Source of the DNA: an uncultured Bacilli bacterium
Lineage (GTDB): Bacteria; Bacillota_I; Bacilli_A; RF39; UBA660
Assembly: GCA_949505625.1 (NCBI GenBank)
Contig: CATBQD010000007.1
Coordinates: forward strand, 1-64,000
Direction: 5' to 3'
Length of the DNA stretch: 64,000 bases
Made by a program: the position numbers and the translations under genes. Positions 29,382-33,624 of the stretch are shown piece after piece. The notes below the pieces were generated by a model. That model worked only from the letters and a program-made list of their open reading frames with translations. It did not search any database and was not told the DNA's origin. Position 1 is the stretch's first letter. Each line of letters begins with the position of its first letter.

Positions 29382-29397
29382 CTTTTTGGTGATGTTT

Positions 29398-29676
29398 ATG
29401 AAGCAAACCCATAGGAATGAAGCAGAAAAAAAGCTCATTGTTAATCGAATGAATCGATTGATTGGACAAATGAATGGAATTAAAAATATGGTCAATGAAG
29501 ACCGCTATTGTGATGACATTTTGATTCAATTATCTGCCATTCAAAAAAGCATTGGAAGTTTATCTAACCACATTCTAGAAAATCATTTATACTCTTGTGT
29601 CAGCAAAAGTATTGAAGATGGAAATATTGAGATTTTAGATGAATTAATTAGTATATTTAAACGATTTAACAAATAA
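29398..29676 (+). CDS. csoR: Copper-sensing repressor CsoR
   Basis: A 92-aa DUF156-type metal-sensing repressor. Helix layout matches CsoR: RMNRLIGQMNGIKNMV, DRYCDDILIQLSA with the first Cu ligand (Cys), and HILENHLYSCV with His and Cys as the others (the C-H-C set). No DNA-binding HTH is expected; CsoR binds through a basic face. It heads csoR-copZ-copA and sits behind an operator palindrome. ATG at 29398 after GGTGAT is chosen over in-frame TTG/GTG/ATG codons overlapping that site. Confidence 0.93.
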   Translation: MKQTHRNEAEKKLIVNRMNRLIGQMNGIKNMVNEDRYCDDILIQLSAIQKSIGSLSNHILENHLYSCVSKSIEDGNIEILDELISIFKRFNK

Positions 29677-29690
29677 TAAGAAAGGGTGAT

Positions 29691-29909
29691 ATGATGAAAA
29701 ATATAATCATTAAAGTAGAAGGAATGAAATGTAGTGGCTGTGAAAACAGAATCATGAATGTGTTAAAAAGTATTGATGGAGTAAAAACAGTGAGCGCAAA
29801 TCATGAAAAAGGTACTGTAGAAATTACACTTTTAAAAGAAATAAACTCTAATATTCTAAAAGAAAAAATTGAGACGCTTGGATTTTCTGTTGTTGGTGAA
29901 GAAGTATGA
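29691..29909 (+). CDS. copZ: Copper chaperone CopZ
   Basis: A 72-aa heavy-metal-associated domain protein. The metal site is in VEGMKCSGCENRI (CxxC). It ferries Cu(I) to the ATPase encoded immediately downstream, with which it overlaps by four bases (ATGA). Two adjacent ATG codons (29691, 29694) are possible starts behind AAAGGGTGA; the second has the better spacing. Confidence 0.94.
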   Translation: MMKNIIIKVEGMKCSGCENRIMNVLKSIDGVKTVSANHEKGTVEITLLKEINSNILKEKIETLGFSVVGEEV

Positions 29910-32098
29910 AAAAAGTCATTTTGAAAATTGATGGTATGACTTGTAGTGCTTGTTCATCTGGTTTGGAAAAATATTTAAATAAGCAAACTGGAGTTAAAGC
30001 AAGCGTGAACCTAGTTCTATCTCAAGCATTGATTGAATATGAAGATAATATTACGATTGATGAGCTAAATAAATATATTGAAGAAGCAGGTTTTTTAAGC
30101 CTTGGTGTTTATAATCCAAATGAAGAGAAAAAAAAGAGTCCCAAAGTTCAATTATATGTCTTTTCTTTTTTAGCCTTTCTTGTTTTATATGTATCAATGG
30201 CTCCTATGATAGGATTACCTAGTCTTCCTTTTTTAAATATGGATATTTATCCAAAACAATATGCTGTTGGTTTAATGATTTTAACTATTCCATTTTTCTT
30301 TTATGGAAAAGATATTTTTGTAAATGGATACAAAAATTTAATTCATAAAACGCCAAATATGGACACATTAGTTTCTATTGGTGTCATCGCTAGTTTTGGA
30401 TATAGTATTTTTGGAACCATTATGATTTTTTTAGGACATATGGATTATGCCCATCACTTATATTTTGAATCTGCTGCTATTGTAATTTATTTTATCAAAT
30501 TGGGTAGATTTATTGACCAAAGAAGTAAAGAAAAAACAAGCAGTGCGATTAAGGAGCTTGTACAAATTACTCCAACCAAAGCGTTGTTAAAAAAAGACAA
30601 TAAAGAATTTGAAATTACGATAGATGAAGTACAAGTTGGTGATATTCTAATTGCGAGACCAGGTATGAAGATTGCGGTTGATGGAATTATTACCAAAGGT
30701 GAAAGTCACTTAGAAGAAGCTTTTATTACTGGAGAATCTACTCCTGTAAAAAAGAAAAAAAATGAAACTGTTGTCGCTGGAAGTATGAATATAGATGGCT
30801 ATATTGAATATAAAGCTTTAAAAATAGGAAAAGACTCTACTATTTCTGAAATCGTAAAATTAGTTGTAGAAGCAACCAATACCAAAGCACCTATTGCTCA
30901 TTTAGCTGACCGAGTAAGTCTTTACTTTGTTCCAACAATTATTGCGATTTCTATTTTTACATTCTTTATATCTTTATTAGTAGGATTATCATTTAGTGAT
31001 GCAATTAATTCATTTGTAAGCGTGCTAGTTGTTGCTTGTCCTTGTGCTTTAGGTCTTGCAACTCCACTCGCTATTGTAGTCAGTATTGGTCTATGTGCCA
31101 AAAAAGGAATTCTAATTAAACAAAGCAAAACTTTAGAACAAGCTCATCAAATCGACACAATTGTATTTGATAAAACTGGTACTTTAACTTATGGAAATAT
31201 GAAGATATCTGAAATTATGTTATTTAATAGCTATAATAAAAATGAAATATTAAAAATGGTAGCTAGTTTAGAAAAAAACTCTAGTCATCCTATTAGTAAA
31301 GCTTTTTTACATGAAGCTGAACAATTGAATATAGAGTTAGAAGCTATATCAGAATTCCAGAATATTCCAGGTGTTGGATTATCTGGAATCATTGAAAACA
31401 AAACAATCTATGTTGGTAATCAAAAAATATTTGATAACCTTAATATCAGAAACACACATGAAAAAGATGAAAAAAGGCTAAGCGAAAATGGTTCTAGTAT
31501 TGTTTATGTTGTTTTAGAAAATCAAGTAGTTGCATTAATTGGAGTAAATGATATTGTAAGAGAGAACAGCAAAGCCACAATTTCAAAACTAAAAAGTTTA
31601 GGAAAAAATGTTATTATGTTAACTGGAGATAATTTAAAAACAGCTAGTAGAATTGCAAAAGAAATTGGAATTGAACAAGTAAATGCGAATGTTATGCCTG
31701 CTGAAAAAACAAATATAATTAAAGAATTAATGAAGCAACAAAAAATAGTAATGATGGTCGGAGATGGAATCAATGACGCTCCTTCTCTAGCAAGCGCAAA
31801 TGTTGGTGTTAGTGTTAGTAACGGAACCGATATTGCTGCCAATTCTTCCGATGTTATTCTGATGAATGATGATTTAGAAAAAATTGTTTCCCTTCTTATT
31901 ATTAGTAAAAAAACAATTCAGATTATCAAACAAAATCTTTTTTGGGCATTCTTTTATAATATTTGTATGATTCCAATCGCAGCTGGGATTTTCACTCCTT
32001 TTGGAATTCATATGAATCCTATGTTTGCAGGATTTGCTATGATGGTTAGTAGTTTTACGGTCATCTTAAATTCTCTTAGACTAAAAAATATCAGATAA
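29906..32098 (+). CDS. copA: Copper-exporting P1B-type ATPase CopA
   Basis: A 730-aa P1B-type ATPase. One N-terminal HMA domain (GMTCSACS), eight membrane helices with the CPC motif in VVACPCALGLATPLAIV, actuator TGES in FITGESTPVKKK, phosphorylation site DKTGTLT, nucleotide-binding HP in SSHPISKAF, and hinge GDGINDAPSLA. CPC plus the conserved Tyr/Asn and Met/Ser of the last two helices mark Cu(I) export. Co-transcribed with csoR and copZ, induced by copper. Confidence 0.97.
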   Translation: MKKVILKIDGMTCSACSSGLEKYLNKQTGVKASVNLVLSQALIEYEDNITIDELNKYIEEAGFLSLGVYNPNEEKKKSPKVQLYVFSFLAFLVLYVSMAPMIGLPSLPFLNMDIYPKQYAVGLMILTIPFFFYGKDIFVNGYKNLIHKTPNMDTLVSIGVIASFGYSIFGTIMIFLGHMDYAHHLYFESAAIVIYFIKLGRFIDQRSKEKTSSAIKELVQITPTKALLKKDNKEFEITIDEVQVGDILIARPGMKIAVDGIITKGESHLEEAFITGESTPVKKKKNETVVAGSMNIDGYIEYKALKIGKDSTISEIVKLVVEATNTKAPIAHLADRVSLYFVPTIIAISIFTFFISLLVGLSFSDAINSFVSVLVVACPCALGLATPLAIVVSIGLCAKKGILIKQSKTLEQAHQIDTIVFDKTGTLTYGNMKISEIMLFNSYNKNEILKMVASLEKNSSHPISKAFLHEAEQLNIELEAISEFQNIPGVGLSGIIENKTIYVGNQKIFDNLNIRNTHEKDEKRLSENGSSIVYVVLENQVVALIGVNDIVRENSKATISKLKSLGKNVIMLTGDNLKTASRIAKEIGIEQVNANVMPAEKTNIIKELMKQQKIVMMVGDGINDAPSLASANVGVSVSNGTDIAANSSDVILMNDDLEKIVSLLIISKKTIQIIKQNLFWAFFYNICMIPIAAGIFTPFGIHMNPMFAGFAMMVSSFTVILNSLRLKNIR

Positions 32099-32114
32099 AA
32101 CTGATATTTTTTCT
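32087..32114 (+). terminator. Terminator of the copper operon
   Basis: Stem ATATCAG/CTGATAT with a 6-nt loop that contains the copA stop codon, followed by T6. Confidence 0.8.
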
Positions 32115-33405
32115 ATTTTATGATATCTTTTATTTTTGATATATCATCTAGTGATACTTCTATTTGTTCACTGGTATTCATATTTTTTAAATTAAATTTC
32201 CCTGTTTTTATTTCTTCTTCTCCAAGTACAATTACGAATGGTATTTTTTCTTTATTTGCAAAGTCTAAGCTTTTCTTGACCTTTTTACGACTCATTTCTA
32301 GTTCTACTTTTAATCCTAAGTTTCTAAGTTTAGTTGCTAAATCAAGACTTTCTATTTCTGTATTCATCGGAATGATAAAAATATCTATCAAAGAAGAATC
32401 TTCAAAACGACTATCATTTTTTAATAACTCATAAATAGAAGTAAGTCCAAAACTAATTCCAACGGCTGGATAACTCGTTCCATCATCAATGAATTCGGTA
32501 ATCATATTATCATATCTTCCTCCTCCACCAATGCTTCCAGTTAAGCGTTTATTCTTTTCATATACTTCAAATACATTTCCAGTATAATAATCTTGTCCAC
32601 GCGCTAAAGTAGAAGTGAAAACACAATATTCTTCAATCTTTAGACCTACAATATATTCATATAGTTTATTTAATTCTTCTAATCCAACTTTCAATTTTTC
32701 ATTATTTGTATCCTTAAATTTCTCATTCAACTCTTTTAATGATAAAGTAAAATATTCTAATAAATTTGTAATTTGACTTTCATTTAAACCAATTTCTTTC
32801 AATTGTTCTTTGAACTCATCTCTTGATAATTTCTCCATTTTATCAACAATTGTAACAACTGTACTTACAAGATTTTCTTCTATTCCACATTCTAATATTA
32901 AACCGCTCATTAAGCTTCTACTATTATATTTAAGTACAATTTCAATATTAAGCTTCTTAAAAGCATTAATATAAAGATTTACAAGTTCTGCTTCTATCAT
33001 TTGTCCTGGTAGTCCAACTACGTCTACATCACACTGTGTAAATTCTCTATCTCTTCCTACTTTTACTGGGCCATCTCTAAAAACTTTAGCAATTTCATAA
33101 CGCTTAAATGGCATTTTTAATTGATTTTTATTAAGAGCAATTAATTTAGCAAATGGAACTGTTAAATCATAACGTAATCCTAATTCCCTATTTCCTTGGT
33201 CTGTTAATCGATAGATTTCTTTTAAAATATCATTTTGTTCATCATATTTTCCACTTAGCATATCAAAATAACAAAGGATAGGAGTCTCAATTGGACTATA
33301 CCCATATTCTTCAAATGTCTCTTTCAAAACTCCATTAATATAATTTCTAATTTTTTGTTCTTGTGGTAAGAAATCATAACCACCTTTTACATTTTGTATT
33401 TTCAT
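32113..33405 (-). CDS. hisS: Histidyl-tRNA synthetase
   Basis: A 430-aa class II synthetase of normal length. Signatures: GGYDFLP near the start, motif 2 in FKRYEIAKVFRDGPVKVGRDREFTQ region, the histidine-specific LARGQDYYTG, and motif 3 with GSIGGGGRYDNMI and AVGISFGLTSIY. The C-terminal anticodon-binding domain is complete, about residues 330-430. Start at 33405 follows AGGAGGG; an in-frame extension to 33495 crosses the terminator stem of the leader. Expression is probably controlled by the His-codon leader upstream. Confidence 0.95.
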   Translation of the reverse strand: MKIQNVKGGYDFLPQEQKIRNYINGVLKETFEEYGYSPIETPILCYFDMLSGKYDEQNDILKEIYRLTDQGNRELGLRYDLTVPFAKLIALNKNQLKMPFKRYEIAKVFRDGPVKVGRDREFTQCDVDVVGLPGQMIEAELVNLYINAFKKLNIEIVLKYNSRSLMSGLILECGIEENLVSTVVTIVDKMEKLSRDEFKEQLKEIGLNESQITNLLEYFTLSLKELNEKFKDTNNEKLKVGLEELNKLYEYIVGLKIEEYCVFTSTLARGQDYYTGNVFEVYEKNKRLTGSIGGGGRYDNMITEFIDDGTSYPAVGISFGLTSIYELLKNDSRFEDSSLIDIFIIPMNTEIESLDLATKLRNLGLKVELEMSRKKVKKSLDFANKEKIPFVIVLGEEEIKTGKFNLKNMNTSEQIEVSLDDISKIKDIIK

Positions 33406-33420
33406 ATATTTCCCTCCTAT

Positions 33421-33455
33421 AAAAAAACTATACAAGTTTGATAGTACTTGTATAG
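33421..33455 (-). terminator. Attenuator terminator (segments D and E) upstream of hisS
   Basis: A 10-bp perfect stem CTATACAAGT/ACTTGTATAG (minus strand 33455-33446 and 33437-33428) with an 8-nt loop and T7 run, ending 15 bases before the hisS start. It lies inside the transcribed leader, which makes it an attenuator rather than a gene-end terminator. Confidence 0.85.
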
Positions 33456-33521
33456 CATATTCTTTTATACTAGATACAAGCACCACAAATAGCACTTGTA
33501 CCTACAACATGAAAAGTCGTA

Positions 33522-33569
33522 TTAACAAGTGCGATTATTATGATGATGATTTTTTAATGTTTTTAACAT
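33522..33569 (-). CDS. hisS leader peptide with three consecutive His codons
   Basis: A 15-aa ORF, MLKTLKNHHHNNRTC, starting with ATG at 33569 behind a strong AAAGGAGAG site 8 bases upstream, and ending with TAA at 33522. Three consecutive CAT codons occur at positions 8-10 of the peptide. It starts about 20 bases after the predicted transcription start and ends at the first of the pairing segments. Nothing about the peptide itself looks functional; the His run is what matters, as in enteric hisL. Too short for usual gene finders. Confidence 0.82.
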   Translation of the reverse strand: MLKTLKNHHHNNRTC

Positions 33570-33595
33570 AATAATCTCTCCTTTAAAACAACTTT

Positions 33596-33624
33596 ATAAT
33601 ATCATAGAAATATTCAATTGTCAA
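33596..33624 (-). promoter_or_regulatory. Promoter of the hisS leader
   Basis: On the minus strand, TTGACA (33619-33624), 17-bp spacer, TATTAT (33596-33601); transcription would begin near 33589, giving a leader of about 170 nt before the terminator run. Confidence 0.8.

What the first reader, a model, noticed from the sequence alone, without database searches (positions are those of the whole stretch)
33421..33624. Histidine-codon leader peptide and multi-hairpin attenuator controlling hisS
Seen: a near-consensus promoter, a strong ribosome site, a 15-codon ORF with CAT-CAT-CAT, then five segments that pair alternately (A:B 8 bp, B:C 6 bp, C:D 7 bp, D:E 10 bp), the last pair being a terminator with T7 just before the hisS ribosome site. 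Known: enteric his operons use a His-run leader peptide, while Firmicutes aminoacyl-tRNA synthetase genes usually use T-boxes. Inference: ribosome stalling at His codons uncovers segment A, so A:B forms, C:D pre-empts the terminator, and hisS is expressed. The logic fits without special assumptions. I know of no described leader-peptide attenuator for hisS in this group.
Basis: partly seen in the sequence, partly recalled or inferred. Interest (0 to 1): 0.87.

Follow-up and report, generated by a model that had tools for sequence, protein, structure and literature searches.

The report
Histidine leader-peptide switch before hisS
In front of the gene that loads histidine onto tRNA lies a tiny peptide gene whose histidine codons let a stalled ribosome turn the gene on, and the same RNA scaffold recurs in dozens of related bacteria with its codons swapped to arginine, cysteine and other signals.

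Summary
Upstream of hisS (32113-33405, minus strand) lie a near-consensus promoter, a strong ribosome site, the ORF MLKTLKNHHHNNRTC*, and five segments A-E in which A:B, B:C, C:D and D:E can pair, D:E being an intrinsic terminator. Close relatives carry homologous M...HHHN(S/N)LHLLIRH* leaders. A swap test over 66 diverse elements supports exactly the four claimed pairings, with no clear signal for six control pairings. In the window copy, folding with a ribosome stalled at the His codons favours the antiterminator C:D by 3.5 kcal/mol; a ribosome at the leader stop favours the terminator by 5.3.

The kind is known: His-leader attenuators were predicted for the Bacillus hisS paralogue and hisZ in 2010, and for his operons of B. 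cereus, Peptostreptococcaceae and Erysipelotrichales in 2022. What appears new is that this chassis is a modular family (58 of 386 family genomes, 41 of 150 genera): other copies carry Arg runs before M20 peptidases, Cys runs before cysS, Trp-Arg-His leaders, and leaders before ABC-F genes. Two further copies (one His, one Arg) lie in the same genome, beside ten T-boxes. It is not in Rfam. Nothing was tested in the laboratory.

The parts
33619..33624 (-). -35 hexamer TTGACA
   Evidence: conserved in several relatives
33596..33601 (-). -10 hexamer TATTAT, 17-bp spacer, 11 of 12 consensus positions
33576..33584 (-). Shine-Dalgarno AAAGGAGAG of the leader ORF
33522..33569 (-). leader peptide ORF MLKTLKNHHHNNRTC* (15 codons)
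   Evidence: frame conserved in relatives
33540..33548 (-). sensing codons CAT CAT CAT (His3), ending 7 nt before segment A (8 nt in most relatives)
33516..33532 (-). segment A (GCACTTGTTAATACGAC); overlaps the end of the leader ORF
   Evidence: A:B covaries
33492..33508 (-). segment B (GTTGTAGGTACAAGTGC)
   Evidence: pairs with A or C
33469..33484 (-). segment C (GGTGCTTGTATCTAGT), 5' half of the antiterminator
   Evidence: pairs with B or D
33443..33456 (-). segment D (GCTATACAAGTACT)
   Evidence: pairs with C or E
33428..33436 (-). segment E (CTTGTATAG), 3' half of the intrinsic terminator
33421..33427 (-). T7 tract of the terminator
33412..33418 (-). Shine-Dalgarno AGGAGGG of hisS
32113..33405 (-). 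hisS, histidine--tRNA ligase (430 aa), closest to NCBIfam NF009085/PRK12420; the only HisRS match in the assembly

Best explanation
This is a ribosome-mediated transcription attenuator sensing charged tRNA-His. RNA polymerase transcribes the leader while a ribosome translates MLKTLKNHHHNNRTC. When charged tRNA-His is plentiful the ribosome reaches the stop codon, which lies inside segment A. It covers A, B pairs with C, D is left to pair with E, and transcription stops before hisS. When charged tRNA-His is scarce the ribosome halts on the CAT run. Its leading edge stops about at the start of A, so A:B forms, C is free to capture D, the terminator cannot form, and hisS is transcribed. Shown by sequence: the parts, their conservation, the four alternative pairings, the fixed codon-to-A distance, and thermodynamic switching in the window copy. 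Inferred: translation of the ORF, stalling on low charged tRNA-His, and the effect on hisS expression.
For: Anatomy. Homologous leaders precede hisS genes of the same type in 9 related loci. In a 63-sequence alignment 95.8% of A:B and D:E cells pair, 23 of 24 pairs have double changes, and 0 of 500 shuffles reach this. Register-free swap test: A:B, B:C, C:D, D:E all better in their own sequence than swapped (0 of 2000, 0 of 1000); control pairings mostly flat, CE and BE marginal. A mechanically chosen SD-preceded ATG reads the His codons in frame in 51 of 57 elements, with ATG-to-core offsets of -18 to -30 in steps of three. The run ends 8 nt before A in 40 of 47 His elements, and 8-10 nt in all 16 Arg elements although the codons differ. 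Window folding: stall gives C:D 15.7 pairs, D:E 0.0; completed translation gives B:C 13.7, D:E 10.9; ddG +3.5 versus -5.3 kcal/mol. Downstream genes match the codons: hisS, hisG and hisZ-like for His, cysS for Cys.
Against: No expression, toeprint or ribosome-profiling data. Column-level covariation for C:D is not above shuffles; only the register-free test supports it, and the permutations do not correct for relatedness. The equilibrium folding does not switch cleanly in all relatives: mean D:E pairs 5.4 when stalled against 8.9 when finished, and several copies fail. Some genes of the same hisS type lack the leader (L005, L007; also L108, L110, L112). Folding ignores transcription kinetics.
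Confidence: 0.87

Rival explanations
1. Classical four-segment logic: the stalled ribosome covers A and B:C is the antiterminator.
For: B:C is a real, conserved helix. This is the logic of the enteric trp and his leaders (general knowledge).
Against: B:C leaves D free to pair with E, so the terminator would form on starvation, which is backwards for hisS. The His codons end 7-8 nt before A, so a stalled ribosome leaves A almost entirely free. C:D, not B:C, excludes D:E.
Confidence: 0.04
2. T-box or other tRNA- or metabolite-binding riboswitch, the small ORF being incidental.
For: Firmicutes aaRS genes usually use T-boxes; the same genome has 10 T-boxes over the cut-off. The B-C loop TTTGT is conserved beyond pairing needs.
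Against: No T-box or other Rfam family here at gathering thresholds; the permissive scan of the leader gives only hits far below the gathering scores. The ORF frame, start, SD and His run are conserved, and codons change with the regulated gene.
Confidence: 0.04
3. Constitutive terminator or sORF of no regulatory meaning; conservation due to recent shared ancestry or a mobile element.
For: Sequences nearest the window are closely related (88-90% hisS identity).
Against: Compensatory changes in 23 of 24 pairs across 63 sequences; matching of codons to downstream genes; spread over 41 genera.
Confidence: 0.03
4. The element works by the same alternative folds but responds mainly to general translation arrest (antibiotics, lack of initiation) rather than to histidine.
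For: Without a ribosome the window copy already favours the antiterminator by 3.1 kcal/mol. Related elements precede ABC-F genes, a family known for antibiotic-induced attenuation.
Against: The codon run matches the substrate of the regulated gene for His and Cys elements.
Confidence: 0.06

Closest known systems
Predicted histidine leader peptide upstream of hisS* (HisS paralogue) and hisZ in bacilli (Naville and Gautheret 2010, PMC2965389)
   Same: His-codon sORF, terminator, HisRS-family gene in Firmicutes. The window HisRS is closest to NF009085/PRK12420, and plasmid-borne relatives in Planococcus and Lysinibacillus (44-45% identity) carry HHH leaders too.
   Different: The Planococcus and Lysinibacillus leaders match the core model only weakly (26.6 and 21 bits). 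The five-segment core and the change of amino-acid specificity are not described in the text read.
His-leader attenuators of his operons in the B. cereus group, Peptostreptococcaceae and Erysipelotrichales (Ashniev et al. 2022, PMC9413887)
   Same: Leader peptides with 3-5 His codons, terminator and antiterminator. In this scan, hisZ-like leaders outside the window's family (L125, L126, L129) match the core model at 39-53 bits, so they may be true relatives.
   Different: Described for his operons, not hisS; the published alignments (Additional file 6) could not be opened here.
Enterobacterial his operon leader (Rfam RF00514)
   Same: His-run leader peptide, alternative hairpins, intrinsic terminator.
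   Different: No match to the Rfam model. In the enteric leader the stalled ribosome masks the first segment (general knowledge); here it leaves segment A free.
Staphylococcus aureus Leu-rich attenuator of BCAA synthesis (PMC5794164) and B. subtilis BmrB / vmlR ribosome-mediated attenuators (PMC4191407, PMC9226507)
   Same: Ribosome-mediated transcription attenuation in Firmicutes.
   Different: Different genes and signals; the papers were seen only as titles and abstracts, their leader sequences were not compared.
T-box riboswitch (RF00230)
   Same: Same job, including hisS in another species of the same genus (L017).
   Different: Senses tRNA directly; the model does not match here.

Membership tests
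Leader-peptide transcription attenuator | Short translatable ORF with SD and tandem codons for the amino acid used by the regulated gene | tested here: met
   HHH before hisS; frame and SD conserved
Leader-peptide transcription attenuator | Mutually exclusive terminator and antiterminator | tested here: met
   D:E versus C:D; (C:D supported by the register-free test only)
Leader-peptide transcription attenuator | Ribosome position at stall versus stop selects the fold | tested here: met
   In silico only, for the window copy: ddG +3.5 versus -5.3 kcal/mol; not clean in every relative
Leader-peptide transcription attenuator | Starvation for the amino acid raises read-through | not testable with these tools
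   needs a reporter experiment
Enterobacterial His leader RF00514 | Match to the covariance model | tested here: not met
   no hit at gathering score
Naville-Gautheret bacilli hisS*/hisZ His leader | His-codon sORF upstream of a HisRS paralogue of that type in Bacilli | tested here: met
   that PRK12420 is the hisS* of the paper is my inference
Naville-Gautheret bacilli hisS*/hisZ His leader | Sequence homology of the leader RNA | tested here: inconclusive
   Planococcus 26.6 bits E 0.001, Lysinibacillus 21 bits E 0.02 against model R2, near the score of a chance hit (19.8 bits) elsewhere in L114; the published sequences themselves were not available
Ashniev Erysipelotrichales His attenuator | His leader before his biosynthesis genes sharing the core | tested here: inconclusive
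   hisZ-like leaders in other families of the class match R2 at 39-53 bits; host taxa not named and the published alignment not readable here
T-box RF00230 | T-box leader covariance model | tested here: not met
   the same scan finds hisS T-boxes in relatives L011, L014, L017, L020

The most novel reading that the evidence does not exclude
One homologous RNA chassis (five segments A-E with a 7-10-nt gap between sensing codons and A in nearly all members) has been re-targeted within one bacterial family by changing little more than the leader codons. Settings seen: His (hisS, hisG, hisZ-like, unknown enzymes), Arg (M20 peptidase operons), Cys (cysS), composite Trp-Arg-His leaders (M20 peptidases), and probably ribosome-targeting drugs (ABC-F genes). 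It would be a leader-peptide counterpart of the T-box, running beside T-boxes in the same cell and, in the window copy, with the ON fold as the default when the leader is not translated.
Probability: 0.6. Interest if true: 0.75.

Novelty: new variant of a known kind. Interest (0 to 1): 0.62.

Why it matters
Firmicutes are the textbook T-box group, and leader-peptide attenuators for aminoacyl-tRNA synthetases there are few and only predicted. A recurrent, re-targetable attenuator family implies that transcription and translation are coupled tightly enough in this clade for ribosome-position sensing. It gives a comparative series for how codon identity, spacing and folds co-evolve, and it assigns amino-acid signals to genes of unknown function that sit behind His or Arg leaders. 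The change of sensing system is visible inside one genus: other species keep the usual HisRS, with a T-box in L017.

Tried and rejected
T-box or other Rfam family: none at gathering scores. A sixth segment, the His codons pairing with the B-C loop TTGTGGTG, would give termination without translation: it fits many His copies, but five of the ten first-aligned copies have a mismatch and the swap test is weak (20 of 1000), so it is not claimed. Column-by-column covariation for C:D: negative in the model-fitted alignment, replaced by the register-free test. Plus-strand hits of the model over the same place (window 33475-33564, E 1e-4) come from the palindromic core. A fourth TTTGTNNTGCTTGT match in the genome (C10:44944) lies in sequence without the other parts and was set aside.

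Full report
What is there. On the minus strand between the end of a protein gene (33628) and hisS (ATG 33405) lie a promoter with 11 of 12 consensus positions, a strong ribosome site, a 15-codon ORF MLKTLKNHHHNNRTC*, and a structured leader that ends in an intrinsic terminator with T7. The 171-nt leader folds at -49.4 kcal/mol against -27.0 for dinucleotide shuffles (z -6.8). Segments A-E are at 33532-33516, 33508-33492, 33484-33469, 33456-33443 and 33436-33428. The gene is a full-length histidine--tRNA ligase: TIGR00442 above cut-off, best match NF009085/PRK12420 below its cut-off. It is the only match in the assembly.

Conservation. Genes of the same hisS type in nine other loci have the same leader, with peptides of the form M...HHHN(S/N)LHLLIRH* or close variants, while L005 and L007 lack it. 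In the same genus the species G003 has the ordinary HisRS with a T-box (L017). The window copy has lost one base after the His run, so its peptide ends inside segment A. The same shortened form is found in L077, and other early-stop forms in L073, L075, L085, L087 and L101. A ribosome at this stop still covers A, so the logic is kept.

Pairing. A covariance model from ten hisS leaders (R1), then a broader one (R2), found about 90 elements. In the 63-row alignment A:B and D:E pair in 95.8% of cells, 194 cells change on both sides, and no shuffle reaches these values. B:C is above shuffles at column level; C:D is not. Because C:D shifts register between lineages (for example GCTTGTTGCCTGTA with CTATACAGGTAA), I used a register-free test: duplex energy within an element against the energy after swapping one segment between elements. 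A:B, B:C, C:D and D:E are all better in their own element (0 of 2000 permutations with 50 representatives; 0 of 1000 with 66; also 0 of 1000 in the subset of 34 outside the plain His class). Most of the other six combinations are flat; CE and BE are marginal in the full set (28-42 of 1000) and flat in that subset. The permutations do not remove relatedness, but the control pairs carry the same relatedness.

Ribosome geometry. The sensing codons end 8 nt before A in 40 of 47 His elements, 8-10 nt in all 16 Arg elements, and mostly 7 nt in the Trp-Arg-His class. A ribosome with the second codon of the run in its A site would reach to within 2 nt of A. With A free, the window RNA has 15.7 C:D pairs and no D:E; with the ribosome at the stop it has 13.7 B:C and 10.9 D:E pairs. 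Forced-state energies agree: the antiterminator is favoured by 3.5 kcal/mol when stalled, the terminator by 5.3 when finished; without any ribosome the antiterminator is favoured by 3.1. Not every relative switches as cleanly in this equilibrium model.

Leader translation. Choosing mechanically the ATG with the best SD match, 51 of 57 elements with a CAY-CAY motif have it in frame, and the distance from ATG to the core varies only in steps of three among these. This is evidence of selection on reading frame, though not proof of translation.

The wider family. R2 matches 58 of 386 genomes of the window's family, 41 of 150 genera. At class level few genomes match, with hisZ-like genes carrying HHH leaders in other families of the class. 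In the window's own genome there are two more: C15 (L101, MLKQINRQHHHNNLHL*, before a phosphoribosyltransferase-like gene and a TIGR00725/LOG-like gene) and C2 (L102, MKLFLQNNRRRYR*, before an M20 peptidase and a second gene). Elsewhere the run is Cys before cysS (L094 CC; L143 CCCC...CLCC), Arg before M20 peptidases, or TWRH/WHH before M20 peptidases. The elements before ABC-F genes often have VGKKIMY-type leaders without an amino-acid run. The weakest matches (about 40 bits) should be read as architecture matches rather than proven homologues. The genome also has ten T-boxes above the Rfam cut-off, so the two sensing systems coexist.

Known or new. Two papers in the library bear directly on this. 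PMC2965389 (2010) predicted a histidine leader peptide before hisS* and hisZ in bacilli and noted that leader peptides can replace T-boxes. PMC9413887 (2022) predicted His-leader attenuators for his operons in three Firmicutes lineages, Erysipelotrichales among them. I found HHH leaders before plasmid-borne hisS relatives in Planococcus and Lysinibacillus. So the hisS leader itself is a new member of a predicted kind. The conserved five-segment chassis with changing amino-acid specificity is, as far as the held library shows, undescribed; most subscription papers are not held, so this is not proof of absence.

Noticed in passing
L102 (G000:C2:84033-84158, same genome as the window): Arginine version of the same element: MKLFLQNNRRRYR* before an M20 (ArgE/DapE-like) peptidase and a second gene; homologues in several genera.
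   Followed up: partly
L101 (G000:C15:1553-1673, same genome): Second His version, before a 305-aa phosphoribosyltransferase-like protein of unknown role and a TIGR00725/LOG-like protein; in several relatives the first gene is split into two reading frames.
   Followed up: partly
L143 (G147:C97) and L094 (G392:C10): Cysteine versions before cysS: MLNNMKYCCCCNNCLCCR* and MLLYRNTCCMKSMHLSL*.
   Followed up: partly
L136, L142, L144, L145, L146, L148, L152, L153, L155: Composite leaders (TWRHIGNTYTYR and variants) before M20 peptidases, perhaps sensing Trp, Arg and His together.
   Followed up: no
L092, L093, L097, L104, L105, L128, L135, L150, L151, L154: Elements of the same architecture before ABC-F (ribosome protection-like) genes; leaders often share VGKKIMY without an amino-acid run, suggesting antibiotic-induced stalling.
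   Followed up: no
window 33485-33490 (B-C loop) and relatives: The loop TTTGT between B and C is conserved across His, Arg and Cys elements without a clear pairing partner; unexplained.
   Followed up: partly
L062 (G213:C86) and clusters L058/L059/L065/L071/L085 and L060/L074/L080/L081: His leaders before a histidine-racemase-like (CntK-like) protein, a ~500-aa protein without family match, and GNAT acetyltransferases: candidate histidine-related functions.
   Followed up: no
window 29386-32098: Probable CsoR-like regulator ORF followed by a heavy-metal P-type ATPase (called by eye only); looks ordinary.
   Followed up: no
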